From: Arthrobacter alpinus
GTDB lineage: Bacteria > Actinomycetota > Actinomycetes > Actinomycetales > Micrococcaceae
Direction: 5' to 3'
NCBI RefSeq assembly: GCF_001294625.1
Contig: NZ_CP012677.1
Location: 2,356,001-2,420,000 of the forward strand
DNA: 64,000 nucleotides
The notes beneath the pieces were generated by a model, which was given only the letters and a program-made list of their open reading frames with translations, was not told the DNA's origin and did not search any database. Shown here one piece after another: positions 22,632 to 57,041 of the stretch; the stretch's first letter is position 1, and each line of letters opens with the position of its first letter. The position numbers and the translations under genes are program-made.

Positions 22632-22633
22632 GT

Positions 22634-24318: not shown

Positions 24319-24336
24319 CCCCGGCCTCTCTGTTTT

Positions 24337-24379
24337 TAAGTGCTCTGTGTTTATTGGGTCTGCGTATAAGTGCTCTGTG
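24337..24379. repeat. 13-bp direct repeat, 30 bp apart, before the acetyltransferase gene
   Basis: TAAGTGCTCTGTG occurs at 24337-24349 and again at 24367-24379. If the longer acetyltransferase start is used, the repeat is in frame and encodes TEHL twice, ten residues apart. Otherwise it lies in the short gap after the glycosyltransferase stop. Confidence 0.8.
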
Positions 24380-24407
24380 GGCAAAAGTTCTATGCCCATT
24401 GTTCCAG

Positions 24408-25505: not shown

Positions 25506-25512
25506 GCTGGGT

Positions 25513-37790: not shown

Positions 37791-38978
37791 CTAGTCCCGG
37801 TTCTTGGCCAGCTCACTGACAATACTATTTGCGATCTCAAATGCAGCAGTCGCTGCCGGCGAAGGCGCATTGAGAACATGGATTTGCCTTGGTGCGTATT
37901 GGAAGAGGAAATCATCCACCATGGCCCCATTGCGCAACATAGCTTGGGCCCGCACGCCAGAATGCGTGGGCACTAAGTCAGCATTCCGAATAGCCGGGAC
38001 AAGGCGGCGAAGACTCGCTGCAAACTTGGGTCGCGAGATCGAGCGCCACGTTTCACTCAAGGCGGGGCCGATGAACTTTGCACCCAACACCCAAAGCCCG
38101 GGCCAAGTAGCACTCAAAAGCAACTCACGGACGTTGATCTTGGTCCAGCCGTAGCCCTCACGCGCGAAGGCAAAAACGGCGTTGGGTCCGGCGTGCACTC
38201 CTCCCTCGATCATTTTTGTCAGGTGCACACCTAGGAACGGGAACCGTGCATCCGGAACCGGATAGATCAGGCCCTTGACCAAGTGCTGAGCCTCCGGGCG
38301 AAGTTCAAAGTACTCACCCCGGAAGGGGATGATCCGAGCCTCCGGCCTAAGTCCGGCAGCTACAGCGATCCGGTCACTGTACAGTCCAGCGCAGTTCACC
38401 AGGTAGTCGCCAGTTACGTCACCGGTGGTGGTTGTCACGGTGACGCCCGCGGCGGTTGTCGCGATGGCAGTGACCTCCGCGTCAAACCGGATTTCGCCCC
38501 CTGAATCACGGATGAGATCAACTAGAGTGGAACAGATCCCCTTATAGTCAACAATTCCCGTGCTCTCGACTCGCAAGGCGGCCACGCATGAAACATGAGG
38601 CTCGTATTCGCGAGCCTCCTCAGCAGTAATCATCCGGCACGGCACACCGTTTGCTTGGCCCCGCTCGTAGAGTTTTTGCAGGGCAGGGACTTCATCGTCG
38701 GTGACGGCGACCACCAACTTACCGCAGATATCGTGTTCAACTCCATGCTTGGCGGCAAATTCCACCATGGACCTGGCTCCTGCCACAGCCATGGTGGCCT
38801 TCAGGCTCCCCGGGACGTAGTACAGACCGGAATGAATCACACCTGAATTGCGCCCAGTCTGGTGCCTAGCTTCGGAAGATTCCTTTTCGAGGACAACAGC
38901 GGTGTCTCCCCGATCCTGCAAAGCGTTGGCCACGGCCAGTCCAACGATTCCTGCACCAACAACGATGACCCTGGACAT
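37791..38978 (-). CDS. lhgO: L-2-hydroxyglutarate oxidase family flavoprotein (LhgO-like)
   Basis: This 395-residue FAD-dependent oxidoreductase of the DAO family begins MSRVIVVGAGIVGLAVANAL (dinucleotide fold), with RHQTGRNSGVIHSGLYYVPG, the LhgO signature containing the flavin-region His, and a GGVHAGPNAVFAFAREGY block. LhgO oxidises L-2-hydroxyglutarate to 2-oxoglutarate and passes electrons to the membrane. It is the last gene of a minus-strand run of sugar-modification genes. Why it sits in a polysaccharide locus is unclear; it could be unrelated metabolism or oxidise a different hydroxy acid. Confidence 0.88.
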   Translation of the reverse strand: MSRVIVVGAGIVGLAVANALQDRGDTAVVLEKESSEARHQTGRNSGVIHSGLYYVPGSLKATMAVAGARSMVEFAAKHGVEHDICGKLVVAVTDDEVPALQKLYERGQANGVPCRMITAEEAREYEPHVSCVAALRVESTGIVDYKGICSTLVDLIRDSGGEIRFDAEVTAIATTAAGVTVTTTTGDVTGDYLVNCAGLYSDRIAVAAGLRPEARIIPFRGEYFELRPEAQHLVKGLIYPVPDARFPFLGVHLTKMIEGGVHAGPNAVFAFAREGYGWTKINVRELLLSATWPGLWVLGAKFIGPALSETWRSISRPKFAASLRRLVPAIRNADLVPTHSGVRAQAMLRNGAMVDDFLFQYAPRQIHVLNAPSPAATAAFEIANSIVSELAKNRD

Positions 38979-39046: not shown

Positions 39047-40102
39047 TTAGTCTGATTCAGGCTTTTCAAGCACATGCAACGGTTGGGAATGCCGATTTTG
39101 CCTAACGGCCGTCAAGGCGGCGCATCCGGCCATGGCCAGGTCCGCGATAGTGAACATTACCCTCGAAAGCAACGCAAACGCCGTCGCGGTTCCCACACCC
39201 AAGGACGGGCCAAGGACCAACACGATGACTGCCTCACGTGCACCCAATCCTGACGGGAGGAAAAAGGCCAGCAGACCGGCAATCATCCCGATACCCATGG
39301 CCCCAACGGCGGATGCCAGCTCACCGGGGCCGGAGAACCCAATACTGGATGCCAAAATGTACAGGTGCAGTCCGTAGAGGCAGTAGGCAGCCAGTGCCCA
39401 CCCCAATGAGGATGCCACAACCTTGTATCCGAGACCGTGATCAGGCCGTGGCTTACGCAGGATCTTGAATCCTAGCCTCGCCAGCCGGGTCAACACGCGC
39501 GGATGCAACATGATCAGGCCAATGGGCAGTAAAGCGTAGAGCCAAAGGAAGACAGGCTGGTTCTTCGCCAACATGGGGACAATCAGCCCACCCGCAAGCA
39601 AGGATCCAACGGCTGCCACAGCCACCGAGAACAGTGTTGCTGCAAAAACGCGGGCACGGGCAACCCCGTAGCGGCTTCCTAACTCAATTTGAAGGATGTA
39701 TGCCCAAACGGAGCCAGGCACATATTTGCCAATGGAACCCACGAGGAAAATCTGGGCCCCACGAAGAACGCCAACATTTGGGCCCAAATGCTCCAACAGT
39801 ACCTGCCAGCTCATCAAGCCGCACAGAATTCCTGCCATGACAGCCAGGAAGGACAGCAAGACCATTGGAAAGGACAATTTGACCAAGGCACTTGTGACTT
39901 CTGCCCATTGACTTTGGATAAAGACCACAGCAAAAATGATCGCCGAGGCAATAAGGAGAATTCTGACAAGCAATGAAAGGCGAGATTTGAGAGTCGGTCT
40001 CGACTTGTGTTCGCCATGGGTAGGCACTTTTTCCTGCGCCTCGGTGTTGACACTCAAGGGGGGCAGCTCCTCGGCTGCCCGCCCATTGTTCAAAACCACC
40101 AT
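39047..40102 (-). CDS. Lysylphosphatidylglycerol-synthase-TM/AglD-like membrane protein
   Basis: This 351-residue protein has eight or so helices after a polar N-terminus of about 40 residues. Landmarks are VGSIGKYVPGSVWAYILQIE, an internal basic loop, and FFLPSGLGAREAVIVLVLGP near the C-terminus. This is the UPF0104/LPG_synthase_TM pattern, found in lipid flippases and in proteins linked to lipid-linked sugar handling. Its ATG at 40102 shares a base with the preceding TAA (TAATG), coupling it to the acyltransferase gene. Substrate unknown. Confidence 0.8.
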   Translation of the reverse strand: MVVLNNGRAAEELPPLSVNTEAQEKVPTHGEHKSRPTLKSRLSLLVRILLIASAIIFAVVFIQSQWAEVTSALVKLSFPMVLLSFLAVMAGILCGLMSWQVLLEHLGPNVGVLRGAQIFLVGSIGKYVPGSVWAYILQIELGSRYGVARARVFAATLFSVAVAAVGSLLAGGLIVPMLAKNQPVFLWLYALLPIGLIMLHPRVLTRLARLGFKILRKPRPDHGLGYKVVASSLGWALAAYCLYGLHLYILASSIGFSGPGELASAVGAMGIGMIAGLLAFFLPSGLGAREAVIVLVLGPSLGVGTATAFALLSRVMFTIADLAMAGCAALTAVRQNRHSQPLHVLEKPESD

Positions 40103-40545
40103 TACCCTACCTTCGCGAATATCGGGATTCCATCATCGGAAAAACTGACAGTGGCAGTCACTTTGGCGGGTACGCCCGCAACAACAGTCCGAGCTGGAAC
40201 ATCCGAGGTCACAACTGCTCCCGCTCCAATCACTGCCTCATCACCAATCGTGACACCCTTCATCACCACAGCATTGGCGCCAATAAAGACGCGGTCGCCA
40301 ATACTCACTGGTTCCCGTTCCACTGTCTCAAAACGCCTGCCAGAGACACACCGCTTGGCCGAAGAGTGCGTGTAAATATGCACTCCAGAACTGATGTCGC
40401 AGTCGGCACCAATGACTAGCCCGCCAGAACCATCAATCACCGTAAACGCACCGATCCAGGTACCATCGCCTATCGCCGGCTCGCCCACAAACCAGGAGGC
40501 CTCGTGGTAGTCGTTGTCAGGTAGCTTTCCGGCTGTCCGAGTCAT
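40102..40545 (-). CDS. Hexapeptide-repeat acyltransferase
   Basis: This 147-residue left-handed beta-helix protein has hexapeptide repeats ([62 protein letters not shown]). The HIYTH segment with its His is typical of sugar O- or N-acetyltransferases. It is coupled on both sides by TAATG overlaps to the epimerase and the membrane protein genes. With the DegT aminotransferase further upstream it may acetylate an amino sugar made by this set. Confidence 0.82.
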
Positions 40546-41477
40546 TAGTTACCGTTGAGGATGAGCTCGGTCATGCCGTCAGCAACCTTAATGGTAGGTT
40601 CCCAACCCAAAACTTCCTTTGCACGGGTGATGTCTGCCGCACGGCGGCTAACAATCACGTCGCGGGGGTTGAAGATGGGCTCGACATCGGCGCCAACTGC
40701 CTTGATCAAGATGTGTGCAAGATCGGCCACTGATGTGTCGATGCCCGTGCCCAAGTTGATTGCCATTTTGTCCTGTTCGGACTCGAGCGCTGCAACGATA
40801 CCTCGGGCGATGTCGTGGACATGGATGAAGTCCATGGACTGCTCGCCCTTGCCGTCAATTACAGGCGGCTCACCATTCTTGATGCGAGCGACAAAGTGGT
40901 TGATCACCGAAGTGTAGTAAGCAGTCAACTTCTGGCCAGGGCCGTAAACATTGAAGAATCGAAGTGCATTCCAGGACAGGCCCGACCGGCGTCCATAGTA
41001 CGCCAAGATATCTTCACTGGCCCGCTTGGTGATGCAGTACGGCGTAATGGGACGCAGCATGTCGTCCTCGTGCATGGGAAGCTTTTCCGGGTCTCCATAA
41101 ACGGAAGCGCTGGAGCAGAACACGACGCGCTCAATGCCAAGGTCAGCTGCGGCAGCAAACACGTTGTGGCTACCGACAACATTGATGTCCATGGACTCGT
41201 ACGGAGCCGCCTGGCTGCGGTTCACCGAGTCGGCTGCCGCGTGAATGACATGGGTGCATCCCTTCATGGCGGCATACACTGCGCCACCATAGCGGACATC
41301 CTCGTCGACGATCTCCACCATACCGGTTTCGACCAACTTGTTCGCGGCGTCGCGGTCGCCTCGGAACATGTTGTCAAAGATACGAACCTTGTATCCCTTT
41401 TCGAGCAACATCGGAATGGTCTTGAGACCAATCCAGCCAGCACCACCGGTGAAGAAGACTATCTTATCTTCGGCCAT
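40545..41477 (-). CDS. NAD-dependent nucleotide-sugar epimerase/dehydratase
   Basis: This 310-residue extended short-chain dehydrogenase has GGAGWIG as its NAD motif (Trp in place of the usual Tyr or Phe), [13 protein letters not shown], the catalytic SSASVYG and a YCITK YxxxK pair, then [13 protein letters not shown] and [16 protein letters not shown]. These place it with UDP- or dTDP-sugar 4-epimerases and dehydratases. It follows the DegT aminotransferase by 40 bases. The exact sugar is not evident. Confidence 0.85.
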
Positions 41478-41517: not shown

Positions 41518-42660
41518 TTATGCATTCCGGACGGCCGCGGTGGCCATCACTGTGCGCAGGGTTTCGGCCACGTAGCTCACGTCATCTTCGCTGAGCTCCG
41601 CGTGCATAGGAATTGCCAACTGTCGTCCAAACAAGCTCGCAGAAACTTCACACACGGCGTTGGATTTATACAGCGGCTGCAAATGCGAGGCGTAGGTGCC
41701 GAAGTTGCAACCAACCCCGTTTTCACGCAGGGCCATAGCCACAGCACCACGATCGATGGACGGGTCGAAAGTCAAAACGTAGGACTGATAGGGGTGTGTT
41801 CTATCGGCAAGGGCCGCCGGTATGGTCAAGCCCTCTATGTCGGAGATCAGCTCATGGTACTGATCAGCTGCCCGGTTGCGGGCAGCCATCAATGCCGGCA
41901 TCCGCTTTAGCTGCACGCGCATGATTCCCGCTGCGATATCTGACATTCTGTAGTTGTAGCCGAGCTCATCAAAGGAGGGGACAGGCAGATCCATTGAACC
42001 CTCACGCGTCAGTGCCGGGGCAATCCCGTAGGTGTGTAGCTTGCGTGCGTGTTCAATCAGCTCAGGATTGGAACTTGTCAGTGCCCCGCCCTCGCCAGCG
42101 GTGATTCCCTTGCGTCCGTGGAAGCTGAAGGCAGCAATATCAGCGAGGTTTCCGGCGGGCTTACCCTTGTATGTGGCACCGGCCGCGCAAGCTGCATCTT
42201 CCATGACCCAAAGCCCATGTTTCGTGGCAATGGCGTTGAGCTCGTCGTAGTCTGCCGGCTGACCAAAAGCGTCGACGGCAATAATTCCGACGGTCTTGTC
42301 AGTAATGGATGCCTCGGCAGCCGCGGGATCGATCGTCCAAATATCTTCACGGACGTCGGCAAAAACGGGCGTCGCTCCCGCCCATTTTACAGAGTGACCG
42401 GTAGCTGGGAACGTATAGTCGGCAACAATGACTTCATCGCCGGGCTTGACGCCTGAAACCATCAATCCGAGGTGCAAGGCAGAGCCGCAATTGGACGTCG
42501 AAAGCGCCTTGGGAACACCGATGGCCGCCGCAAATTCTTCCTCAAAAGCTTTGCAAGACGGACCCGCACCAGACAACCAGCCTGAGTCAAATACTGCCTT
42601 TACAGCATCCAGTTCTTCTTGTCCTACCGTTGGTTGTCCCAAGGGAATCTGCCGTACCAT
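41518..42660 (-). CDS. DegT/DnrJ/EryC1 family sugar aminotransferase
   Basis: This 380-residue PLP enzyme starts at ATG 42660 (MVRQIPLGQPTVGQEELDAV) with GGAG five bases upstream. Landmarks are STSNCGSALHLGLMVSG (phosphate binding), VMEDAACAAGATYKG, and the PLP Lys in AAFSFHGRKGITAGEGG. It is clearly a different DegT subtype from the two WbpE-like copies in the window (SFHGRK rather than SLYPTK). It probably aminates a 4-keto or 3-keto nucleotide sugar produced with the adjacent epimerase/dehydratase. It is the first gene of the run down to lhgO. Confidence 0.88.
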   Translation of the reverse strand: MVRQIPLGQPTVGQEELDAVKAVFDSGWLSGAGPSCKAFEEEFAAAIGVPKALSTSNCGSALHLGLMVSGVKPGDEVIVADYTFPATGHSVKWAGATPVFADVREDIWTIDPAAAEASITDKTVGIIAVDAFGQPADYDELNAIATKHGLWVMEDAACAAGATYKGKPAGNLADIAAFSFHGRKGITAGEGGALTSSNPELIEHARKLHTYGIAPALTREGSMDLPVPSFDELGYNYRMSDIAAGIMRVQLKRMPALMAARNRAADQYHELISDIEGLTIPAALADRTHPYQSYVLTFDPSIDRGAVAMALRENGVGCNFGTYASHLQPLYKSNAVCEVSASLFGRQLAIPMHAELSEDDVSYVAETLRTVMATAAVRNA

Positions 42661-42924
42661 CGTGCTCCAATGTTTAGTACCCTGACTTCGTCGTAGTGCG
42701 TCAGAGCCGTCTATGAATTTCCTGCGGTCTTCTCGTGCCGCCAGATGACTAGGCAGTGGCCTGCACCGTTTCAAATACTAGCAGTAAATGCCCCATGCCA
42801 ACGGGACATCGCCCTACTGCCCTATGCTCCACGGTAGGGGATTTCGCAGCGACTGGGTAGGCATAAGCCCAAGGATACCCGCGTAGAGTAAAAATACCGA
42901 CGCCCCCTTCAGCACTCATTTCCT

Positions 42925-45225
42925 TTAGTCTGAAGCGTCTGTCTGAGATTTCCGATTTCGGCGTTTACCGAACCCGGAGGTCGTGCCAGTTCCGCCAAGA
43001 ACCATACCGCGTTGGAAGAGGATCTGGCCCACCACCACCGCGATTGATGCCAGGGCCACAGCAGCAAGTCCTGGTCGGAGCCCAGGTGTACGGTAGTCAA
43101 TGACTACCGTGTGCTCTCCTAAAGGAACATCCAACATCAGCAAACCCGCCGGTCCTTGACTGACAGGAACGCTTTGCCCGTCAATTGTGGCCCGGTACCC
43201 TGGCCACGCCAGTCTCGCAAAGAGCAACGATCCAGCCTCTTGGGCATCCACACGCAGTTCTTCATGATGGGGGGAAGAGTCTGCGTTCAAGATGGCAATG
43301 TCGCTGGTGGCCAACGAGACTGTTCCACCAGGGTTGAAGGATGCCTTGCGGTGCAGTACGTACCGATACTGGTCATCCGAGGTAACTTCCCACGTGTCCG
43401 GGATGATGGAGAGAAAATTGTCATTGTGGAACCCTTTCTGCACCACAACCGAGTCCACGCGCAACGAATCTGCCAAGGTTCCGTTGAATCCACCTCCTGC
43501 GGGAAGGAAAAGGGCCGTCACAGCAAACGGGTAAACCGGGGCGCCCCGGTAGTCCAGATACAAGGCGTCCGAGAAGGCCGAAAAACCGATCCCGGTGTAC
43601 CGTCCCAGCGTGTCGATGCCTGCGGCTGCGCTGACGTTCCCGGAAATGATGTCGCCAGAGAGAATAGCTGCCTGGCTATCGGGTTTGCTGAGGCTCGACT
43701 GGATCAGCACATTTCCGGTCAATGACTTGTTCCTGTCAGTCACGACATTCAGATCTTGAACCTGCCTGATGTCGGCATCGTACCCAAACTCATGCTGGGT
43801 CCAAAAATAATGTGGCGTTATAATCGCGGTCACCACGACGGTGCCGGAGACCATCACAACAACCAGCCCCTTGATGCCGACTTTCCAATTAAACAGCAGT
43901 GCCGTCGCTGTCGCTGCGACTAAGACAGCAAAAATCAGAAAGTGGAACCCCGCATTCTGGGGAGTCTCCGCCCAAGCATAATAGTAGCCAAACAGGAGAA
44001 TGGCGGACGTTGCGCCGAGTCGGATCTTTCTATGGTTCGATGCCAAACCGCCACTGATAGCAACACTAAAGAGCACGGCAACAGCTACATAGAAGTACTC
44101 AATGGTGCGAAGCGGCCAGCGAAACAGCCAAAGCTCCGAGGGTGCGAGAACCAACAGGAGGTAGAGTCCAGCAAAAAGGAACAGGCTGATAAGCGAACGC
44201 CAGCGCTCCTTGAAGAATCCGATGTTGATCCACGGGAGCAGTGGAGCCACAAACCAGGCTAGATAGGTGGATGGGACAACGTCACGAATCTGGTACCAAG
44301 CCGAGAAGTGTGGTTGGAAGCCGGGCAGGCTAAGCGCAAACAAGTCACCAAGTTGGGGTCGCAAATACCCCGAATTCATGGCCTCTGTCACTGGTTGGCG
44401 CATAAGAACCGAACTTGATTCCATCAATGGCAAGAACACCAACAAGACCACCGCGCCGATGGCCAGCCCCAGAAAGACCATATTCACGAAGCGGAGCCAC
44501 TGCCGGTACAGGAGCAGTTCAATGCCCAAGGCAATCAAAACTGCAAGGATCCCAAAGATTGCATAGGGGTTGCCCGTAGTCACTGCCAAGGCACCGAAGA
44601 CGAATGCCAACAGCGGGCCTCGAATGCCCAAGCTCGTATTGTGCGCGGACCACCAAAAAAGGACCACCCAAGTCAACGCCATGAGGCCAGAGGCCCAGTT
44701 GTTGGCGCCATAGAAAAAGGTGAACCCTCCGAAGGGCACGGCCGTGGCAACCGCGATCGCCGGCCAGCGTGCGGACCCGTAGCTCACGGACAAGCAGTAA
44801 ACGCCAACACCTAAAAGGGCAAGGAACTCGACCATGATGAGGGTCGCACCCCAGCCTAGATTCGGCAGAAACGAGATCAGCACCCCATTGAACAGCGTCA
44901 CAGGATTAAAGATCCCATAGGCTGCCTCGGCCGCATAGTTCCCACCGCCCCACCCTGAAGGATCCATCGTCAGCCATTGTCCTTGCCGAAGATCTTGGCC
45001 AAATCGATGCCACAACGGAATGAAGGAATCGGCGTTGTCGCCCCAGTAGTAAAGTCCTGGGACGAACAGGCGGAGGATGACACCCGTAAGCGCAGCCACT
45101 GTGAAAACGATCAAGACGTCCCTAGTCCTGGGCCTGCGAGAACGTGCCCGCCGGCCGCCGGCAAATTGGTGCACGGGAGCCTCCGTGACAGCCACGGAAT
45201 CAGTTGGTGATACTGGCAGACTCAC
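42925..45225 (-). CDS. Large YfhO-like polytopic membrane protein, paralogue 1
   Basis: This 766-residue protein has about 11-12 helices in its first 450 residues and a C-terminal extracytoplasmic domain ending with a last helix. The loop after the first helix (YYWGDNADSFIPLWHRFGQD) resembles the acidic catalytic loop of GT-C enzymes, and the C-terminal SLLFARLAWPGYRATIDGQS is a YfhO-family signature. YfhO proteins are thought to glycosylate lipid- or wall-linked polymers. The start is GTG 45225 without a clear ribosome-binding site. A close-format paralogue (767 residues) lies at 46689-48992. Confidence 0.8.
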   Translation of the reverse strand: MSLPVSPTDSVAVTEAPVHQFAGGRRARSRRPRTRDVLIVFTVAALTGVILRLFVPGLYYWGDNADSFIPLWHRFGQDLRQGQWLTMDPSGWGGGNYAAEAAYGIFNPVTLFNGVLISFLPNLGWGATLIMVEFLALLGVGVYCLSVSYGSARWPAIAVATAVPFGGFTFFYGANNWASGLMALTWVVLFWWSAHNTSLGIRGPLLAFVFGALAVTTGNPYAIFGILAVLIALGIELLLYRQWLRFVNMVFLGLAIGAVVLLVFLPLMESSSVLMRQPVTEAMNSGYLRPQLGDLFALSLPGFQPHFSAWYQIRDVVPSTYLAWFVAPLLPWINIGFFKERWRSLISLFLFAGLYLLLVLAPSELWLFRWPLRTIEYFYVAVAVLFSVAISGGLASNHRKIRLGATSAILLFGYYYAWAETPQNAGFHFLIFAVLVAATATALLFNWKVGIKGLVVVMVSGTVVVTAIITPHYFWTQHEFGYDADIRQVQDLNVVTDRNKSLTGNVLIQSSLSKPDSQAAILSGDIISGNVSAAAGIDTLGRYTGIGFSAFSDALYLDYRGAPVYPFAVTALFLPAGGGFNGTLADSLRVDSVVVQKGFHNDNFLSIIPDTWEVTSDDQYRYVLHRKASFNPGGTVSLATSDIAILNADSSPHHEELRVDAQEAGSLLFARLAWPGYRATIDGQSVPVSQGPAGLLMLDVPLGEHTVVIDYRTPGLRPGLAAVALASIAVVVGQILFQRGMVLGGTGTTSGFGKRRNRKSQTDASD

Positions 45226-45708: not shown

Positions 45709-46692
45709 CTAACTTTCCTTTGCTTCAGCACCCAAGTCTGCCGAGTACCTGCGACTCGAGAGGATGTAAACAGGACGACGGCGGGAGTCGTCACCAGCTC
45801 GCCACACGTATTCTCCAACGGTTTGTAACCCGATCAGAAGAGCTCCGCCGACCAATCCAATCAGGCCGCCCAAGAGAGTAAGTCCACCAGGTATGCCCTT
45901 GCCAAAAATCATGAGCACGATTGCGGCGAGCAGTGCCAGACCACCCAAGGAAGCCAAGATTACTCCGCCCAGGCCCAACCACTGCAAGGGGGCGCTGGAG
46001 AACTCCACGAAGGAATCCATGACCAGTTTGATCTTCTTCTTACGGGTCCACTTACTGGCTCCGTGAGGGCGGGGCATCTGCTCGAAGAAGATGTGCGTCT
46101 GGCTAAAACCCGTCCAGGCGATCATACCGAGGACGTTGCGGTTGGCCTCCGGCATCGCCCGAATAACCTCGATGACCTGGCGGCTGACCAGAATCTGAGA
46201 TGGCCCCTCCTTTGGGTAAGTGGGGATGACAGAGTTTGTATTCAGTACGTGGGAGAACGTAGTGGACAGCAGGTCGTTGGCGCCCTTTTTGGCAGCGCGC
46301 ACCGAACGGAGTCCCCATACAATTTCATTGCCTTCCCGCCACTTCGCCAAGAAATCTGCAATCGCACTCAGCGGCTCCTGGAGATCCGCGCTGAGTGTGA
46401 TGGCAGCATCACCTGAGCAGTGTTCGAGCCCAGCGGTGATCCCGGCGTGTGACCCCCAATTGCGCGAAAGGGTCAGGACGGAAACCGATTCTCCCGGCAC
46501 CGTCCCCGCCAGAATTGCCTCGCCAGTTCCATCTGAAGAGCCATCGTCAACAACCAGCATTTCGAAGTCTAAGTCCCGAAAGGTGGACTTGATCTCACGA
46601 TAGAACTCGAGCATGCCCTCAACATGCTCAATCTCGTCGTAGGCCGGAAAAATTAAACTGACAAGTTTGGTTTCACGTACGGTATCGGTCAT
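45709..46692 (-). CDS. GT2-family glycosyltransferase with C-terminal helices (GtrB-like)
   Basis: This 327-residue enzyme has an N-terminal GT-A domain with SLIFPAYDEIEHVEGMLEFY, LVVDDGSSDGTGEA, a QEPLSAIADFLAKW segment after TLSADLQ (DxQ metal site), and ASKWTRKKKIKLVMDSFVEF, followed by two C-terminal membrane helices. This is the GtrB/ArnC pattern of polyprenyl-phosphate-sugar synthases. Its ATG overlaps the stop of the upstream YfhO-like gene (ATGA). It may make the lipid-phosphate sugar used by the two YfhO-like proteins that flank it, as GT-C enzymes require such donors. Confidence 0.88.
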   Translation of the reverse strand: MTDTVRETKLVSLIFPAYDEIEHVEGMLEFYREIKSTFRDLDFEMLVVDDGSSDGTGEAILAGTVPGESVSVLTLSRNWGSHAGITAGLEHCSGDAAITLSADLQEPLSAIADFLAKWREGNEIVWGLRSVRAAKKGANDLLSTTFSHVLNTNSVIPTYPKEGPSQILVSRQVIEVIRAMPEANRNVLGMIAWTGFSQTHIFFEQMPRPHGASKWTRKKKIKLVMDSFVEFSSAPLQWLGLGGVILASLGGLALLAAIVLMIFGKGIPGGLTLLGGLIGLVGGALLIGLQTVGEYVWRAGDDSRRRPVYILSSRRYSADLGAEAKES

Positions 46693-48992
46693 GATCGGTT
46701 CCTGATTTCCTTGGAATTCCCATTTGAAAGGACGTCCGCTGCCTTTCGGCGCCGTCGAACATCCCAGACTTCAAGGCCAATGGTTCCCAGCAACGCCAGC
46801 GCCAAGGCACCAATCCCTGCTGTGAATCCTGGTGGGGTAAAGCTGAGTACCAAATCCTTCTTCTGCGTTCCGGCGGGCACCTCTACCTGCAGGAGCCCAG
46901 CGGGCCCCGTCATGACGGGGATGCTGTTGTCGTCAAGAGTTGCTGTGTACCCCGGCCAGTTGAGCCGTGCAAACGAAACAATTCTGTCATTGCCATCAGT
47001 AGCCGAGACGTTAGCCGTTTCCCGGGTATCACTGAGTGAGACATTACTGTTGACTTGCACGTCAGCCCCATGGGTGCTGACCCGGCCCTCCTCGAATTCA
47101 AAAGGTGCATCCCGGGTGTAGACACTGACCTGATTATCTTCAGAGACCTTTGTCCATCCTTCAGGCGCAGGCGGTGATGTCACATCCGTTCCATGAGGAC
47201 TGCCAGGACTCTCTGGAACCGGATCATTCCAGCGAACCACTGTTTGTACTCGCATCATGTCCGCCAACACGAAACTCGATCCAGCTGGTTTCTGCCACAA
47301 GGAAGCCCAGGCATCAACACAGCTTCCGCCGTAGTAACTCGCACACAGAGCATTGTCCAGCTTGGTAAAGCCGATGCCAGAATAGGAAGTGGTTGATTCC
47401 ACGCCGACCGCGGCAAACATGTTGCCGAAAAGAATGTCTTTCCACGCACGATCAGGCGCAAGTGCGCCGGCCGGGAGCGTGTCACGGTTGGCAACGACCA
47501 CAGTGAGACCCTTGTACTTTGCATCAAAATTGCTCTTCATGGCACTGCGGGACTGCGGGAAGTTGTAGTTTGCTACATTGTCGTTGGTCTTCATAAAGGA
47601 TGTCTGCATGAACAGCACTAACAAAGTAGTAATGCCAAGGAACATGAAAAGCTGCCGGCCGGTGGGGCGGCGCCAGACAAAGAGGGCAACTAAAATAAGC
47701 GTCACAAGGGCAAACAGCGCATGCCATTTCCATGGCCCCGGCCGGTCAGACCAAGCCAGCCAGACACCAAATATGACAATACCAAAGCTCAACGAAGCGC
47801 GTAGCTTGAATTTATCCTTGCCCCATCCCTTGTCCAACGCCAGTGTAAAAATCAGCAACAACGCGAGGTAGAAGAAGGGGATGAGCCTCAAGGGCCATCT
47901 GAACATCCCCAGATTTGATGGACCAAGAACCAGAAACAGGTAGAAAATTCCGAAGGCGATGGCCGAGGACCAGATTTTCCAGCCCTTGGCCAGCGATTTG
48001 TACTTGATCCACGGAAGGAGCGGCATGACAAACCACGCCAAATAAGCCACCGGAACAGTGAAATACGGCAACCCGAATGCGCGAACGTAAATCTGGAAGC
48101 TTCCTGTACTCAATCCCATGATGTCGGAGAGGTTGGGAGAGAAGAATTCGTCGTTGAAGGTGGTGCTGTCGGCGCGAACACCAACTGAGGATGTGAGTAC
48201 GAACGGCAGATAGATCAGAACGCAGGCCAGGGCGCCCAAAGCGCCAGCCAAAACTATCGTTCGAAAAGCCTTCCAGTTCTTTTGTATCCCCGCCTCAATG
48301 CAGCACGCGGCGATCACTGCGGCTGCGGCAAGTAGGCCATAGGGATTTCCGGTTGATCCCAGCAGATAGACCATCAATACGACGACGAATATAGGGGTCC
48401 GGCCTTCCACGTAGCGCTTGACCGACCACCACAGCCATGGTGTAAAAGCCATAATCGCTGTCCCGTTGATCCAGGCAGTGCCATCCATAAACAGGTTGTA
48501 ACCGCTAATCGGCAAAACTGCACCCATGATGGCGCTGGCCCAAGGCCTGGCACCATAGGCGCGCGCCAGGAAATACGCACCAATGGCCATGATGAAGAAA
48601 AGTGCAAACTTCGCGACAGATATGGCCAGAGCCAAGTTATCGATGGGATATGTCCCAAGCATGAGTCCGACCATGACGGGGTTGAAAAGTCCTGTGGCCG
48701 ACTCTGCTGCAAAATTGCCGCCACGCCACATGTCAATCTGCAGCAGAGGCAAATGTCCTGCCAGGATCTGCTCGGCAATACGCTGCCAGACACCCACTGC
48801 TGCACCTGCGGTGTCGTCCCAGTAATAAAAGTTGAAGGAGTTGCGCAGTGGCATGATCACGCCAACAGCGACGACAACCAACATGGAGAATATGGGCATG
48901 GCCCGGCGAACACTGCTCGTTTCAGCACCACGATTTCTGGGGCCGCGGTCGCTCGATTCATTCGGGCGATCGTCTTGCATAAGGGCAGACAT
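46689..48992 (-). CDS. Large YfhO-like polytopic membrane protein, paralogue 2
   Basis: This 767-residue protein has the same layout as 42925-45225. A first helix and the loop NFYYWDDTAGAAVGVWQRIA are followed by the GGNFAAESATGLFNPVMVGL block, about twelve helices, and a C-terminal domain with IVSFARLNWPGYTATLDDNS and a final helix. The shared blocks show common ancestry, though identity is modest. The WDD pair in the first loop could be catalytic in a GT-C-like mechanism. It starts three bases after the stop of a decayed wzt copy. Confidence 0.8.
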   Translation of the reverse strand: MSALMQDDRPNESSDRGPRNRGAETSSVRRAMPIFSMLVVVAVGVIMPLRNSFNFYYWDDTAGAAVGVWQRIAEQILAGHLPLLQIDMWRGGNFAAESATGLFNPVMVGLMLGTYPIDNLALAISVAKFALFFIMAIGAYFLARAYGARPWASAIMGAVLPISGYNLFMDGTAWINGTAIMAFTPWLWWSVKRYVEGRTPIFVVVLMVYLLGSTGNPYGLLAAAAVIAACCIEAGIQKNWKAFRTIVLAGALGALACVLIYLPFVLTSSVGVRADSTTFNDEFFSPNLSDIMGLSTGSFQIYVRAFGLPYFTVPVAYLAWFVMPLLPWIKYKSLAKGWKIWSSAIAFGIFYLFLVLGPSNLGMFRWPLRLIPFFYLALLLIFTLALDKGWGKDKFKLRASLSFGIVIFGVWLAWSDRPGPWKWHALFALVTLILVALFVWRRPTGRQLFMFLGITTLLVLFMQTSFMKTNDNVANYNFPQSRSAMKSNFDAKYKGLTVVVANRDTLPAGALAPDRAWKDILFGNMFAAVGVESTTSYSGIGFTKLDNALCASYYGGSCVDAWASLWQKPAGSSFVLADMMRVQTVVRWNDPVPESPGSPHGTDVTSPPAPEGWTKVSEDNQVSVYTRDAPFEFEEGRVSTHGADVQVNSNVSLSDTRETANVSATDGNDRIVSFARLNWPGYTATLDDNSIPVMTGPAGLLQVEVPAGTQKKDLVLSFTPPGFTAGIGALALALLGTIGLEVWDVRRRRKAADVLSNGNSKEIRNRS

Positions 48993-48995: not shown

Positions 48996-49370
48996 CTACG
49001 CCTCTCCTCTCATCCGGGTAACCACGTCTTTGACGGGCTCGTCCATTGTCACTGTGCCGTGGTCCAGAAGGACACTGCATTCACATAGCCGGGAATCTAG
49101 TTCAATTCAGTGACCGATAACTACCAGGGCCTTCCCAGTGTCGGCCAGTGCCTAGGTTCGCTCAATGCATTTCTTTTGGAACGACTCGCCCCCACCGACA
49201 AAGTGTCCTCACATAAAAACAAATCAGGGTCTATGTGGCGCTCATGGAAAAATCGCGTCAAAGATGCATTCCGGAGGAGCAGAACCTCACCCACTGTATC
49301 AATGAACTCACCATTCCCGGAAAATCAAGTGTTGAGCCAATTCGTTTCTGGATGCTCACCAACCGTCCCC
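48996..49370 (-). pseudogene. Decayed 3' half of a wzt-like ABC transporter ATPase
   Basis: On the minus strand, the last part reads ESFQKKCIERT, stop, ALADTGKALVVIGH, stop, IELDSRLCECSVLLDHGTVT and then MDEPVKDVVTRMRGEA before a TAG at 48996. This aligns residue by residue with the C-terminus of the intact Wzt (EPFQRKCIAKIQELAADGRT, then TLVVVSHDLDLVARI, VVLDHGNVTFDGPIQEAVAK). Nucleotide similarity continues to about 49370 (TGCATTCCGGAGGAG versus TACATGCCGGAGGAA), where the SGM segment is followed by further stops. Roughly 120 C-terminal codons remain and the Walker A half is absent. Confidence 0.88.
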
Positions 49371-49431
49371 CGACGCAAAAACGCGAACCCCGGCCGAGTG
49401 GCGGACTCCGCGAATTGCTCTTGGGACAAAG

Positions 49432-50418
49432 CTACAAGGTGACGACAGTTCCGTTGGTCCCCGCTTCCAAAACGGCTTCGGCAACGCGCAGCGTCTCCAG
49501 CCCCTCTTTCATGGTCACAACGTTCATTGATCGACCCAGAATGGCGTCACGGAAGGCCTCGTGCTCCATCTTGAGCGGCTCACGCTTGGCGAGGGCATAC
49601 CTGATGGATGAACCTTCTGAGACACCACGGAAAGCAGCCACGGAATCCCATTCCGTCTCAAAAGTTCCATTTTCAATGAAGGTCAGATCCGCTGTGACAG
49701 TGTCAGCTACAAAGGCCCCGCCTTCGCCCGACACGACTGTCAGACGTTCCTTGAACGGGGAAACCCAGTTGACAACATGGTTGGTGATGATGCCGCCCTC
49801 TAGATGGCCGACGGCGGACACCAAGTCCTCATGGGGCCGTCCACTGCGTCTCGAGATTGCTGCAGAAACGGAGGTAAAGCGACTTTGAGCCAGCCAAGCG
49901 GTGAGGTCGAAGTCATGTGTTGCCAGATCCTTGACCACGCCGACATCGGCGATCCGCGCCGGGAACGGACCCTGACGGCGTGTTTGAATTTGGTAAACTT
50001 CACCCAAATCACCAGCCTCAAGGCGTTGGCGCAGGCGTTGCAGCGCAGGGTTGAACCGTTCGATGTGTCCCACTGCGCCCACCAAAGAGTTCTTGTCAAA
50101 AGCATCAGAGATCCGTCGCCCGGATGCCGAATCAATGGCGATTGGCTTTTCGACCAGAGCATGGATACCAGCTTCGGCCAACGCCGTCGCAACTTCCTCA
50201 TGCAGCATGGTGGGAACAGCGACGACAGCCATGTCCACACCCTCGGCGATGAGTTCCTCAACGCTGGAGCACAGCTTCAGACCGTCGGCCACACCGTGGG
50301 GGTCGCCAAATGCATCAGCGACCGCCACCAGTTCAACGCCTTCAAGTTCGCGCAGGACCCGCCCATGGTGACGGCCCATCATACCGAGGCCGATAAGGCC
50401 CGCTCGCAACTTTGCCAT
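49432..50418 (-). CDS. Gfo/Idh/MocA oxidoreductase, probable UDP-GlcNAc-uronate 3-dehydrogenase (WbpB-like), copy 2
   Basis: This 328-residue protein is colinear with copy 1 at 21639-22631. It has GLIGLGMMGRHHGRV, the EKPIA motif, HIERFNPALQRLRQRL, GVVKDLATHDFDLTAWLAQ and the C-terminal EAFRDAILG. Most differences are conservative. As in copy 1 it is the last gene of a three-gene run after an acetyltransferase and an aminotransferase. Whether the two copies serve different polysaccharides or different donor sugars cannot be told from sequence. Confidence 0.86.
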   Translation of the reverse strand: MAKLRAGLIGLGMMGRHHGRVLRELEGVELVAVADAFGDPHGVADGLKLCSSVEELIAEGVDMAVVAVPTMLHEEVATALAEAGIHALVEKPIAIDSASGRRISDAFDKNSLVGAVGHIERFNPALQRLRQRLEAGDLGEVYQIQTRRQGPFPARIADVGVVKDLATHDFDLTAWLAQSRFTSVSAAISRRSGRPHEDLVSAVGHLEGGIITNHVVNWVSPFKERLTVVSGEGGAFVADTVTADLTFIENGTFETEWDSVAAFRGVSEGSSIRYALAKREPLKMEHEAFRDAILGRSMNVVTMKEGLETLRVAEAVLEAGTNGTVVTL

Positions 50419-51510
50419 TTAGCTTCCTGCCTTCGCCAGTGTGTTTACGGCTTCAACGATACGTTCCAAGTCGGACTTGCTCAGTGATGGATGAACCGGC
50501 AAGGACAAGACACTTTGAGCGGCCTCTTCCGTGTTCGGCAAATCATCCGATGTCGCGAATGGAACCAGTCTATGGTTCGGGATTGGGTAGTAAACACCGC
50601 AACCGATGTTGAATTCTTCCTTGAGTGCTTTGGCAAAACCGTCACGATCCACGGGCACCTTGATGGTGTACTGATGGTAGACGTGTTCGTATCCTTGGGC
50701 CACCTTGGGAGTGGTGATACCTTCCAGATTGGCGTCGAAAAACGCGGCATTTGCCTGGCGTGTTCTGGTCCACGCTCCAACCTTGGTGAGTTGGACACGG
50801 CCAATTGCCGCGTGGATGTTTGTCATACGGGCGTTAAAGCCAACCAGCTCGTTCTCGTACTGCCGCTCCATGCCCTGGTTACGCAACAAACGCAGCCGGC
50901 GCTCCACCTCAGGAAGGTTGGTGCTGACCATGCCACCCTCGCCTGATGTCATATTCTTCGTGGGATAAAGACTGAACATGGCAAAATCGCCAAAGGTCCC
51001 GACCTTCTTGCCATTGACCGCAGCACCGTGCGCTTGGGCGGCGTCCTCAAACAACTTAACATTATGCTTGTTAGCTATGGCATCAAAGGCCTCAGTTTCG
51101 AACGGGTGCCCGTAAAGGTGCACAGGCATGATCGCAGCCGTGCGATCGGTAATTTTCGTTTCCACGTCTGCAGCGTCAAGGCAGTAGTGCTCCAGCTCAA
51201 TGTCGGCGAAAACCGGGGTTGCCCCGGTAAGCGCCACAGAGTTGGCCGTCGCGGCAAAAGTAAACGACGGGACGATGACTTCATCGCCAGGCCCAATGCC
51301 GGCGGCCAGCAAGCCAAGGTGTAGCCCTGACGTTCCTGAGTTAACAGCGACTGCGGCACGGCCGTCCAACAGCACCGAAGAGAATTCTTTCTCAAACTCG
51401 GCTACTTCGCTGCCTTGCGCAAGCTGGCCGCTTGCCAGCACAGCGTCGACTGCGCGACGCTCGTCGTCGCCAATGATTGGCTTAGCGGGGGGAATGAAAT
51501 CCGGGCTCAT
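50419..51510 (-). CDS. DegT/DnrJ/EryC1 aminotransferase (WbpE-like), copy 2
   Basis: At 363 residues it has the same length as copy 1. It starts at ATG 51510, overlapping the acetyltransferase stop as ATGA. Landmarks match copy 1: DFIPPAKPIIGDDERRAVDA, NSGTSGLHLGLLAAGIG, EDAAQAHGAAVNGKKVGTF, and the PLP Lys in SLYPTKNMTSGEGGMVS. It probably transfers an amino group to the 3-keto sugar made by the next gene's product. The oxidoreductase gene follows directly with no gap. Confidence 0.88.
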   Translation of the reverse strand: MSPDFIPPAKPIIGDDERRAVDAVLASGQLAQGSEVAEFEKEFSSVLLDGRAAVAVNSGTSGLHLGLLAAGIGPGDEVIVPSFTFAATANSVALTGATPVFADIELEHYCLDAADVETKITDRTAAIMPVHLYGHPFETEAFDAIANKHNVKLFEDAAQAHGAAVNGKKVGTFGDFAMFSLYPTKNMTSGEGGMVSTNLPEVERRLRLLRNQGMERQYENELVGFNARMTNIHAAIGRVQLTKVGAWTRTRQANAAFFDANLEGITTPKVAQGYEHVYHQYTIKVPVDRDGFAKALKEEFNIGCGVYYPIPNHRLVPFATSDDLPNTEEAAQSVLSLPVHPSLSKSDLERIVEAVNTLAKAGS

Positions 51511-52097
51511 GCCTCGACCTCTCGAAGGGTTTCGTTTTCTTCAACATACTTGTTTCCCGTTTCTGGGCAAATCCAAAAGTCTCCGTTTTTGGTCAACGGA
51601 AATCCAGCCTTCCCAACCCAGCGGATACGCCTAGCAGGAACCCCGGCCACCAAGGCAAAGTCGGGAACATCCTTGGTAACCACGGCACCCGCTGCGACGG
51701 TCGCCCAGTTGCCAATAGATACCGGGGCGACGCATACTGCTCGGGCGCCGATCGAAGCGCCGTCACCGATAGTAACTCCGGCAGGCTCCCAATCCTGTGC
51801 GCTCTTTAACGTGCCATCGGGGCTAACAGACCGCGGGTAGGTGTCATTCGTAAGCACCACGGCTGGACCGATGAAGACGCCGTTGCCCAGTAGAGCGGGC
51901 TCATAAACAAGTGCATAGTTCTGCAGCTTACAGTTGTCACCCATAGTGACGCCGGAACCGACATATGCACCACGTCCAACGATACAGTTCTTACCTAGCT
52001 TTGCACCTTCGCGAACCTGGGCAAGGTGCCAAATTTTGGTACCTTCGCCAATATCTGCCGCTTCGGAGACATCGGCACTTGGGGCAATCGTGGTCAA
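51507..52097 (-). CDS. Left-handed beta-helix N-acetyltransferase (WbpD-like), copy 2, probable TTG start
   Basis: This is the counterpart of copy 1, with GEGTKIWHLAQVREGAKLG, GRGAYVGSGVTMGDNCKLQN, VAAGAVVTKDVPDFALVAGV and the same C-terminal WVGKAG block. The frame opens at GTG 52121, but alignment puts the start at TTG 52097 (LTTIAPSADV against MTSIAASADV in copy 1). AAAGGA lies 9 bases before the TTG. That gives 196 residues. The GTG start would add eight residues. Confidence 0.85.
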   Translation of the reverse strand: MTTIAPSADVSEAADIGEGTKIWHLAQVREGAKLGKNCIVGRGAYVGSGVTMGDNCKLQNYALVYEPALLGNGVFIGPAVVLTNDTYPRSVSPDGTLKSAQDWEPAGVTIGDGASIGARAVCVAPVSIGNWATVAAGAVVTKDVPDFALVAGVPARRIRWVGKAGFPLTKNGDFWICPETGNKYVEENETLREVEA

Positions 52098-52211
52098 AGT
52101 TTTCGGTCCTTTCTGGAGCACCTCAGATGAATCAACCTTGCCATCCTATCGGAGAAAGTACCCTGAACAGGATATTCCCGGCTGCCGGACTGGCCACCAG
52201 GAAGTCAACGG

Positions 52212-52940
52212 CTACTGACCACGGAGTTTTGCCACCGCCTCCTGAATCGGCCCGTCGAACGTTACATTTCCGTGATCCAGAACAACACCCCGATCACAAA
52301 TGCGTGCGACCAAATCCAAATCATGGCTGACAACTACCAAAGTCCTGCCATCAGCTGCCAGTTCTTGTATTTTGGCTATGCACTTCCGCTGGAACGGCTC
52401 GTCACCAACCGCAAGAATCTCATCAACTAAAAAGACTTCTGGATTGGTGTGAACAGCAACTGAAAAAGCCAGTCGTAGGTACATGCCGGAGGAATAAAAC
52501 TTAACTTCCGTGTCAATGAAGTGACCGATTTCTGCAAATTCAACAATCGAGTCAAAGCGATCGTTGATCTGTTCTTCGGTCATGCCCAGGATTGCGCCAT
52601 TGAGGTAGACGTTCTCCCTGCCTGAGAGGTCGTGGTGAAACCCTGCACCGACCTCGATCAGCCCGGCAACTCTTCCTCTCGTTCGCACTGTTCCAGTATC
52701 CGGAATCATGACGCCAGAAATGTGTTTCAATAAAGTCGACTTGCCCGATCCGTTGAATCCAAGCAGCGCAACAGTTTCTCCTTGCCGGACCTCAAGGTTC
52801 ACATCTTTGAGAGCATGGAACTTTTCAGATAGGTCACCTTTTCTGCCCGAGACGACCCAGACAAAGGCTTCCTTGATCGAACGGGAATGCCGCAGCACGA
52901 ACTGCTTGCTGATGCCTTTAACTTCAATTGCTACGGTCAT
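52212..52940 (-). CDS. wzt: ABC transporter ATPase Wzt for polysaccharide export
   Basis: This 242-residue ATPase starts at ATG 52940 (MTVAIEVKGISKQFVLRHSR), just after the wzm stop. Walker A GFNGSGKST, the signature-like FYSSGMYLRLAFS and Walker B EVFLVDEILAVGD are intact, with the H-loop in VVVSHDLDL. It is the short form without the C-terminal carbohydrate-binding domain that Wzt proteins use to recognise a capped chain. This matches the mycobacterial galactan exporter (Rv3781-like). With Wzm it would export a galactofuranose-containing polymer. A decayed partial copy lies at 48996-49370. Confidence 0.93.
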   Translation of the reverse strand: MTVAIEVKGISKQFVLRHSRSIKEAFVWVVSGRKGDLSEKFHALKDVNLEVRQGETVALLGFNGSGKSTLLKHISGVMIPDTGTVRTRGRVAGLIEVGAGFHHDLSGRENVYLNGAILGMTEEQINDRFDSIVEFAEIGHFIDTEVKFYSSGMYLRLAFSVAVHTNPEVFLVDEILAVGDEPFQRKCIAKIQELAADGRTLVVVSHDLDLVARICDRGVVLDHGNVTFDGPIQEAVAKLRGQ

Positions 52941-52941
52941 T

Positions 52942-53820
52942 CTAGAGCTCCTGCGCAAAGCGGCCTTCAAGCCGCCGGAAAGTCAGCTGACCCCAAATGA
53001 GGACCCCCGCTGAAACGATGAGGGCTACGGGCACCCAGATACTCAATAGGTTTGGTGGAATGCCTGCGCTTTCATCGGTTGTGGGCAACCAAAATGCGTA
53101 GTGGAACGTCTCCACAGCAACCGTGATCGGGTTCAACTGGTAGAGGGTAAACCAAGATTCACCCAATTTGTTATGCACCATGGTCCAGGAATACATGACA
53201 GGTGACGCCCACGTAGCCACCATGAGAAGCATGTCCACAAAGTTTTCGGAGTCCCGGAAGTACACATTTGCGGCACCAAAAAGCAATCCCAAACCAGTGG
53301 CCAGCAGAGTGACAATGATGAAGCCAATTGCAGCCGCGGCCAACTGCAGTAGCGACGGATGCCAACCGCTGAAAAAGCAGGCTGCCAACAGGATGAGCAG
53401 CTGTGGAAAGAAGTGGACCGCTGAGACCCAAACTGAGGCCACCGGGAACAGTTGGCGGGGTAAATAGATTTTTTTGATCAATCCACCATTGCCCACAATG
53501 GACCGTGAGGCATTTCCCAGAGCTTCGGTGAAGAAGTTGATCAACACAATGCCGGAAAACAAGTAGATGGCGTAGTTGGGCAAACCCGACTTATTCGTCG
53601 GACTTTGCTCCAAACCCATAAACACACCGAGCGCCACGTAGAACACCAAGAATTGGACACCGGGTTTAATGTAAGACCACATGAGACCCAGCACTGATCC
53701 GCGATAGCGAACCTTGAGCTCCTTGCGAACCAAGAGCTTCAGCAGAAAACGTGCCCGGACTATATCCGCCAGTCCGCCGCTTACTCCCGGGCGGACCAGC
53801 TCATCATTGGTTTGGGTCAT
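52942..53820 (-). CDS. wzm: ABC-2 type polysaccharide export permease Wzm
   Basis: This 292-residue protein has six helices. It begins with a polar segment and RFLLKLLVRKELKVRYRGSV, then the family block LGLMWSYIKPGVQFLVFYVA, with FTEALGNASRSIVGNGGLIK and IYLPRQLFPVASV in the middle. These are typical of ABC-2 permeases for lipid-linked polysaccharides. It lies between glfT2 (6 bases upstream) and wzt, as in the mycobacterial galactan locus. Together they would move a complete lipid-linked galactan across the membrane. Confidence 0.93.
   Translation of the reverse strand: MTQTNDELVRPGVSGGLADIVRARFLLKLLVRKELKVRYRGSVLGLMWSYIKPGVQFLVFYVALGVFMGLEQSPTNKSGLPNYAIYLFSGIVLINFFTEALGNASRSIVGNGGLIKKIYLPRQLFPVASVWVSAVHFFPQLLILLAACFFSGWHPSLLQLAAAAIGFIIVTLLATGLGLLFGAANVYFRDSENFVDMLLMVATWASPVMYSWTMVHNKLGESWFTLYQLNPITVAVETFHYAFWLPTTDESAGIPPNLLSIWVPVALIVSAGVLIWGQLTFRRLEGRFAQEL

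Positions 53821-53826: not shown

Positions 53827-57041
<3,215 letters not shown>

What the first reader, a model, noticed from the sequence alone, without database searches (positions are those of the whole stretch)
48996..52940. Diacetamido-sugar cassette flanked by an intact wzt and a decayed wzt 3' half
The second 3-dehydrogenase/aminotransferase/acetyltransferase cassette (49432-52097) is bracketed by the functional wzt (52212-52940) and a stop-filled fragment matching the last ~120 codons of wzt (48996-49370). Three bases after that fragment starts a YfhO-like gene. The simplest reading is that an ancestral wzm-wzt-yfhO order was split by insertion of the cassette through recombination involving wzt. 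One wzt end was duplicated and the copy left behind eroded. A conserved exporter gene may thus act as a landing site for sugar-modification cassettes.
Basis: partly seen in the sequence, partly recalled or inferred. Interest (0 to 1): 0.75.

Follow-up and report, generated by a model that had tools for sequence, protein, structure and literature searches.

The report
Exporter-gene remnant marks docked sugar locus
In an Arthrobacter-like bacterium the broken half of an exporter gene really is there; it is best read as the last piece of a second surface-sugar gene cluster that came to lie behind the native exporter genes and then lost its own duplicate exporter, a neat but ordinary kind of genome history.

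Summary
48996-49370 (minus) is a frameshifted, stop-filled 3' half of a wzt gene: 212/337 nt identical to the intact wzt, 146 bits against 4.6 for the best of 2000 shuffles. The YfhO-like gene starts three bases after its stop. None of 22 same-genus genomes has the cassette, a remnant or this yfhO directly behind wzt. Arthrobacter cavernae, between the same chromosomal flanks, has AcT-AmT-DHg-glf-wzm-wzt-(3 ORFs)-yfhO-GT2-yfhO-DegT-epimerase-acetyltransferase-LPG_TM-LhgO; the window's cassette groups with it (bootstrap 97). Best reading: a locus of that type lies behind the native glf-glfT-wzm-wzt and its own core was deleted, leaving a wzt end between DHg and yfhO. The remnant is not a recent copy of the resident wzt, but an old duplication is only disfavoured (p-AU 0.11-0.13); a wzt of the genus's second type is not excluded, and A. 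cavernae's own type fits poorly. No second remnant appeared in the 166 other distinct wzt loci, so a general landing site is not shown, although the gene behind wzt varies greatly.

The parts
55842..57026 (-). glf (UDP-galactopyranose mutase), native core
   Evidence: 90-96% identical and in the same order glf-glfT-wzm-wzt in 22 of 22 genus relatives
53827..55845 (-). glfT-like galactofuranosyltransferase, native core
   Evidence: Pfam GlfT2 domains
52942..53820 (-). wzm, exporter permease, native core
   Evidence: Pfam ABC2_membrane; 84-91% to 10 of 22 genus relatives
52212..52940 (-). intact wzt, exporter ATPase
   Evidence: 85-89% to 10 of 22 genus relatives, 72-76% to the other 12; wzm-wzt region nearest to genus relatives in 12 of 16 windows, including the last two
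51507..52121 (-). hexapeptide N-acetyltransferase of the second cassette
   Evidence: Pfam Hexapep; best solved relative 3mqg, LPS biosynthesis acetyltransferase; 78% to A. cavernae
50419..51510 (-). DegT-family aminotransferase of the second cassette
   Evidence: Pfam; WbpE among its solved relatives, not the best; 86% to A. cavernae, 74% to the genome's own native copy
49432..50418 (-). Gfo/Idh/MocA sugar 3-dehydrogenase of the second cassette
   Evidence: Pfam, NCBIfam NF040723 below its cut-off; 82% to A. cavernae
49371..49431 (-). junction between dehydrogenase stop and remnant; no terminator-like site found
   Evidence: scan found 0, shuffles 1.0 on average; comparison with the same place in 11 loci inconclusive
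48996..49370 (-). wzt remnant: decayed 3' half, about codons 124-242, ends in TAG
46689..48992 (-). YfhO-like membrane protein 1, start of the downstream block
   Evidence: 50% to an A. cavernae protein named YfhO family; no Pfam match of its own
45709..46692 (-). GT2 glycosyltransferase of the polyprenyl-phosphate type
   Evidence: Pfam GT2, PgfS and ArnC-type models matched far below cut-off; 69% to A. cavernae
42925..45225 (-). YfhO-like membrane protein 2
   Evidence: PF09586 at 24.9 bits, below its cut-off 28.5; 62% to A. cavernae
41518..42774 (-). another DegT aminotransferase
   Evidence: Pfam; 86% to A. cavernae
40545..41477 (-). NAD-dependent sugar epimerase/dehydratase
   Evidence: Pfam; 91% to A. 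cavernae
40102..40545 (-). hexapeptide-type acetyltransferase by its likeness to AcT
   Evidence: 74% to an A. cavernae ORF that itself matches AcT at 37%; no NCBIfam match at 1e-20
39047..40102 (-). LPG_synthase_TM membrane protein
   Evidence: Pfam PF03706; 80% to A. cavernae
37791..38978 (-). L-2-hydroxyglutarate oxidase, end of the collinear block
   Evidence: NCBIfam NF008726, 526 bits over cut-off 299; 79% to A. cavernae
33916..35508 (+). IS21 transposase beyond the far end of the block
   Evidence: NCBIfam NF033546, 168 bits over cut-off 160
21639..26802 (-). native UDP-sugar 6-dehydrogenase, GT4 and the genome's own AcT-AmT-DHg cassette
   Evidence: cassette groups with 13 other genus cassettes, bootstrap 100

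Best explanation
The window holds two polysaccharide loci end to end. The first is the genus's own exporter core glf-glfT-wzm-wzt. Directly behind its wzt lies a locus of the type seen in Arthrobacter cavernae: a diacetamido-sugar cassette (AcT-AmT-DHg), then that locus's own core, then a YfhO/GT2/DegT/epimerase/LPG_TM/LhgO block. The second core was redundant beside the native one and was deleted from just after the DHg stop to the middle of its wzt; the wzt 3' half was left and decayed. With no terminator found after DHg, cassette and block may be read as one transcript, and the native Wzm-Wzt would serve the product. Shown: remnant, gene orders, cassette kinship, collinearity. Inferred: single import, direction (second locus into native), the deletion step, transcription and export.
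For: Collinear locus in G378/L256, taken as A. cavernae by its contig of 376824 bases: AcT 78, AmT 86, DHg 82, glf 80, wzm 62, wzt 72, three ORFs without a match, then yfhO1 50, GT2 69, yfhO2 62, DegT 86, epimerase 91, acetyltransferase 74, LPG_TM 80, LhgO 79%, with the same chromosomal flanks (83% at 62411-63886; 80% and 82% at 9867-11090 and 95-565). The remnant sits between cassette and yfhO1, where that locus keeps glf-wzm-wzt. Cassette tree of 38: window cassette with A. cavernae and 7 others, ultrafast bootstrap 97; in these eight the cassette lies upstream of glf; the four loci with the cassette behind wzt form their own clade at 100. 0 of 22 genus relatives carry any of it directly behind wzt. 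The remnant is not a recent copy of the resident wzt: third-position mismatch 0.607 against a maximum of 0.482 in 2000 neutral-decay simulations; at 20 sites where the resident wzt departs from its clade the remnant follows it at 5, the clade at 10, neither at 5.
Against: The remnant is not of A. cavernae's wzt type (delta lnL 12.7, p-AU 0.055) and places best with the A. citreus genus, so the source was not A. cavernae itself or had exchanged its core. A placement with the genus's second wzt type (12 of 22 relatives) is nearly as good (delta 2.0, p-AU 0.32), so a source outside the genus is not proven. Placement in the resident's own clade is disfavoured, not rejected (p-AU 0.113-0.134; sister to the resident p-AU 0.03 in the smaller set), and a copy that split off as early as the resident parted from its relatives reproduces the codon-position pattern. 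A. cavernae has three ORFs between wzt and yfhO, the window three bases; yfhO1 is only 50% identical. Neither the 77 bases after DHg nor the 90 before AcT show a clear relic.
Confidence: 0.56

Rival explanations
1. One reading: the resident order was wzm-wzt-yfhO1; the cassette entered by recombination in wzt, duplicating its 3' end, and the copy left beside yfhO1 decayed.
For: The remnant lies three bases before yfhO1, and wzt-yfhO pairs on one strand exist in 5 of 80 named loci. A duplication as old as the resident's split from its relatives fits the codon-position pattern.
Against: 0 of 22 genus relatives have wzt-yfhO1; behind wzt they have other genes. Recent duplication rejected. The remnant shares few states special to the resident wzt. 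Summed RELL support for the resident's clade 0.004. It leaves unexplained why cassette and yfhO block share one source-type locus.
Confidence: 0.14
2. Reverse direction: the resident locus was of the A. cavernae type, and a genus-type core glf-glfT-wzm-wzt was placed in front of its cassette, after which the old core was deleted. Same anatomy, opposite donor and recipient.
For: Both loci lie between the same chromosomal flanks in A. cavernae and the window.
Against: The wzm-wzt region is nearest to the window's own genus in 12 of 16 windows, and none of the 22 other genus members has yfhO1.
Confidence: 0.14
3. Two separate imports: the cassette first, behind the native wzt as in the A. citreus group, and later a wzt-yfhO1 block whose wzt was truncated at the junction.
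For: In L079, L082, L083 and L261 the cassette lies directly behind wzt, the same place as in the window; the remnant places best with that genus.
Against: The window cassette does not group with those four (bootstrap 97 for the other grouping, 100 for the four), and in those four the nearest yfhO genes lie on the opposite strand and are 35-37% identical.
Confidence: 0.14

Closest known systems
Mosaic O-antigen gene clusters with gene remnants, e.g. Salmonella group D2 (D1/E recombinant with an H-repeat remnant) and the wzy remnants of B1/D1 (PMC3715488, passages seen)
   Same: A decayed gene piece inside a surface-polysaccharide locus records a recombination and deletion history.
   Different: There the remnants are wzy and IS pieces; here it is the ATPase gene of an ABC exporter in an actinobacterium, and the inferred event is a second locus placed behind the first and the loss of its duplicate core.
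Arthrobacter cavernae polysaccharide locus (G378, L256, L262, L263)
   Same: Cassette, core and YfhO block in one collinear locus between the same chromosomal flanks.
   Different: Its core is open, of another wzm/wzt type, without a matching glfT between glf and wzm, and three ORFs separate wzt from yfhO.
Arthrobacter citreus group loci (L079, L082, L083, L261)
   Same: AcT-AmT-DHg directly behind wzt.
   Different: No wzt remnant; terminator-like inverted repeat after DHg, by eye, in L079 and L082; yfhO on the other strand; cassette of another clade.

Membership tests
wzt pseudogene remnant | similarity to wzt beyond chance and beyond other ABC ATPases | tested here: met
   146.3 bits, best shuffle 4.6 of 2000
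wzt pseudogene remnant | no open reading frame across the matched stretch | tested here: met
   stops in all three frames, match changes frame
wzt pseudogene remnant | recent duplicate of the resident wzt | tested here: not met
   codon-position simulation, diagnostic sites; an old duplicate is not excluded
UDP-diacetamido-sugar (WbpB/WbpE/WbpD-like) cassette | Gfo/Idh/MocA dehydrogenase, DegT aminotransferase and hexapeptide acetyltransferase side by side on one strand | tested here: met
   Pfam, coordinates; the Wbp names of the route are recalled
UDP-diacetamido-sugar (WbpB/WbpE/WbpD-like) cassette | curated equivalog score for each enzyme | tested here: not met
   NF040723 203 of 450, PseC 263 of 423.5, NeuD 94 of 160.8 bits (for the acetyltransferase the best 25 of 48 matches were shown)
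UDP-diacetamido-sugar (WbpB/WbpE/WbpD-like) cassette | product of the enzymes | not testable with these tools
   needs enzyme assay
Galactan-type Wzm/Wzt exporter | ABC2 permease plus ABC ATPase beside glf and a GlfT2-like transferase | tested here: met
   Pfam and gene order
Galactan-type Wzm/Wzt exporter | NCBIfam galactan equivalog cut-off | tested here: not met
   NF050108 179 of 400, NF050109 59 of 380 bits
Mosaic polysaccharide locus | neighbouring blocks with different nearest relatives | tested here: met
   core nearest own genus, cassette with A. cavernae type
Recurrent landing site at wzt | further loci with wzt remnants beside cassettes | tested here: not met
   none in the 112, 80 and 6 other loci scanned; the sets overlap, 166 distinct besides the window, read for a median of 9.6 kb behind wzt

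The most novel reading that the evidence does not exclude
The seam behind wzt is a general docking place in Micrococcaceae: whole donor loci are appended behind a permissive short Wzt, the duplicate exporter core is then pruned, and remnants such as this one are short-lived witnesses of a recurring way in which surface-sugar decoration is exchanged without touching the exporter.
Probability: 0.2. Interest if true: 0.55.

Novelty: new member of a known kind. Interest (0 to 1): 0.35.

Why it matters
It gives a readable intermediate of how ABC-exporter polysaccharide loci may grow: the exporter core stays native, decoration genes arrive with their own exporter, and the spare exporter is lost. It also warns of an easy misreading: a gene piece beside a cassette need not be a duplication scar of the resident gene but may be the last piece of another locus's core. 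The genome ends up with two complete sets of diacetamido-sugar genes from different clades, which makes the question testable whether both act on one polymer.

Tried and rejected
Mosaic resident wzt (native 5' half, donor 3' half, as in single-crossover integration): not seen; the wzm-wzt region is nearest to the genus in 12 of 16 windows, tied in one, and another genus is slightly ahead in three (one in wzm, two in the middle of wzt), while the two windows at the 3' end are nearest to the genus. Recent tandem duplication of the resident wzt: rejected. Promoter or terminator kept in the remnant: 0 sites of either kind. Donor relics after DHg and before AcT: 11 loci compared at each place; best L259 after DHg (1 of 300 shuffles reached it) and L256 before AcT (5 of 300), all others 29 of 300 or more, so inconclusive for 22 comparisons. 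Consensus sites that separate the resident's clade from the A. citreus genus: remnant with the former at 2, the latter at 7, neither at 2; for two other genera the split is 2 to 1 and 3 to 3; too few to decide. Placement on the remnant's columns alone is unstable: FastTree put it beside the resident wzt and a g26 gene at 0.53, IQ-TREE inside the A. citreus genus at 29-64. Plasmid origin: no DNA match, only two distant protein matches of yfhO1 in Rhodococcus plasmids. The count of 27 first-gene clusters behind wzt (166 of 167 loci gave an ORF, 14 clusters are singletons) contains artefacts of a mechanical ORF choice (the four-member cluster with L098 looks antisense to a 6-dehydrogenase gene; L261's first gene was missed) and is an upper bound. 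The cassette tree took only cassettes with AmT and DHg within 200 bases at 55% identity and 90% coverage or more; 38 entered, the rest, among them L169, were dropped. Locus L087 (no wzt) was dropped from the wzt scans. No listed title names this locus. That a short Wzt without a C-terminal domain exports permissively, and that the gene behind wzt in L032, L036 and L039 is an acyltransferase, are recalled or by eye, not tested.
Full report
Observation. The minus-strand stretch 48996-49370 aligns to the second half of the window's own wzt (52212-52940): 212 of 337 columns identical, score 75 against at most 17 in 500 shuffles. A DNA profile built from 113 wzt genes matches 49353-49006 at model positions 373-722 with 146.3 bits; 2000 shuffles reach at most 4.6 bits. 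All three frames hold stops and the match changes frame. The remnant's TAG is followed by three bases and the ATG of the YfhO-like gene.

Native surroundings. Of 23 genomes of the genus, the window's included, all have this wzt; ten relatives are 85-89% identical, twelve 72-76%. Equal contig lengths identify some as Arthrobacter silviterrae, A. psychrochitiniphilus and Arthrobacter sp. H35-MC1. In 22 of 22 relatives glf-glfT-wzm-wzt stand in this order; in none does the AcT-AmT-DHg cassette or yfhO1 follow wzt directly (21 were read for about 15 kb behind wzt, L049 for 3.5 kb), and none has yfhO1 anywhere at E 1e-30. In three of the six looked at closely (L032, L036, L039) the next ORF is acyltransferase-like by eye and overlaps or nearly abuts wzt. 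Thirteen relatives' own cassettes group with the window's native one (21639-24411, behind the 6-dehydrogenase at 25513-26802) at bootstrap 100. The wzm-wzt region of the window is nearest to genus relatives in 12 of 16 sliding windows, with one tie, and at the 3' end.

Where the cassette and the yfhO block come from. yfhO1 is rare: 12 of 295 family genomes at 1e-30, 12 of 395 at 1e-100, 5 of 396 order genomes at 1e-100; the samples overlap and each count includes the window's own genome. The best family hit outside the genome, G378 at 50%, lies on a contig of 376824 bases, the length given for the Arthrobacter cavernae protein P0005. Its locus is collinear with the window: AcT-AmT-DHg, glf, wzm, wzt, three ORFs without a match, then yfhO1, GT2, yfhO2, DegT aminotransferase, epimerase, acetyltransferase, LPG_TM protein and L-2-hydroxyglutarate oxidase at 50-91% identity, between the same chromosomal flanks. 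A similar block near a glf (75%) but with no wzm or wzt match, and with only distant dehydrogenase and aminotransferase genes (28 and 40%), occurs in a genome of another family, G601. In a tree of 38 cassettes the window's second cassette joins A. cavernae and seven further loci with bootstrap 97; in these eight the cassette lies upstream of glf. Four A. citreus-group loci with the cassette directly behind wzt form a separate clade at 100.

Reading. In the A. cavernae-type order the core glf-wzm-wzt stands between cassette and yfhO block. In the window only a wzt 3' half stands there, and a complete native core stands in front of the cassette. The economical history is that a locus of this type came to lie behind the native core and its own core was deleted from within 77 bases of the DHg stop to about codon 124 of its wzt. 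A terminator-like site after DHg was not found in the window, while several of the other loci hold inverted repeats followed by T runs there, by eye.

What the remnant itself says. If it were a recent copy of the resident wzt that decayed neutrally, mismatches would be equal at the three codon positions. Observed are 0.291 at positions one and two and 0.607 at position three; 2000 simulations of decay fitted to the former give 0.292 on average and 0.482 at most at position three. When the copy is instead started from a relative's wzt, that is, from a split as old as the window strain's split from its ten near relatives, the simulated values (0.30-0.33 and 0.63-0.68) resemble the observed ones, so an old duplication is compatible with this test. 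At 20 sites where the resident wzt departs from its clade the remnant agrees with it at 5, with the clade at 10, with neither at 5. Grafting the remnant on every branch of a tree of 69 wzt genes puts it best in the A. citreus genus, with sister-to-resident 9.5 log units worse, p-AU 0.03. With 132 genes the best place is the same, summed RELL support 0.486 there, 0.204 and 0.104 for two other genera, 0.094 for named loci whose genus handle I did not have, 0.036 for the genus's second wzt type and 0.004 for the resident's clade; that second type is only 2.0 units worse (p-AU 0.32), the resident's clade 6.5 (p-AU 0.134), the resident itself 7.1 (p-AU 0.113) and A. cavernae 12.7 (p-AU 0.055). So the remnant is old, probably of a wzt type other than the resident's, and not of the A. 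cavernae type; whether it came from another genus is open.

Landing site. A wzt-yfhO pair on one strand exists in five of the 80 named loci kept (best of 315), in four with overlapping ORFs, but with other yfhO genes of 27-31% identity. The gene behind wzt varies: at most 27 clusters in 166 loci that gave an ORF, by a mechanical choice that inflates the number. No second wzt 3' remnant appeared in the other loci scanned with the DNA profile. A short profile match in L038 lies 14.5 kb away at the edge of the fetched stretch, and tblastn found other ABC-ATPase-like stretches in 11 of the 112 other loci, L038 included, at 24-52% identity. Variable cargo behind wzt is shown; recombination through wzt as a rule is not.

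Function. The cassette has the three domain families of the WbpB/WbpE/WbpD route (the route is recalled), with a 6-dehydrogenase in the genome, but no enzyme passes a curated equivalog score, so the product is inferred. GT2 plus YfhO-like membrane proteins suggest lipid-linked sugar transfer outside the membrane; this is inference from family names.

Known parallels. Salmonella O-antigen clusters carry wzy and H-repeat remnants that record the same sort of history (PMC3715488, passages). No paper on an Arthrobacter wzt locus was found with the searches named under Tried and rejected; (Arthrobacter, wzt, polysaccharide, gene cluster) gave 0 papers in the held library.

Noticed in passing
37791-48992: The YfhO/GT2/DegT/epimerase/acetyltransferase/LPG_TM/LhgO block recurs in A. 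cavernae and, at 46-75% (acetyltransferase 36%), in a genome of another family of the order (G601, two yfhO1-like genes in tandem); it ends in an L-2-hydroxyglutarate oxidase, an odd partner for sugar genes.
   Followed up: partly
21639-24411 and 49432-52121: Two complete AcT-AmT-DHg cassettes from different clades in one genome.
   Followed up: yes
33916-35508: IS21 transposase (IstA) beyond the far end of the block; no partner gene was looked for.
   Followed up: no
53827-55845: The GlfT-like protein is 85% identical to one relative (G018) but 60-64% to the nine others with the near wzt type, whereas wzm and wzt show no such pattern.
   Followed up: no
L214 and L219, just behind wzt: In these two named loci the yfhO gene behind wzt matches in two pieces and may be broken.
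   Followed up: no
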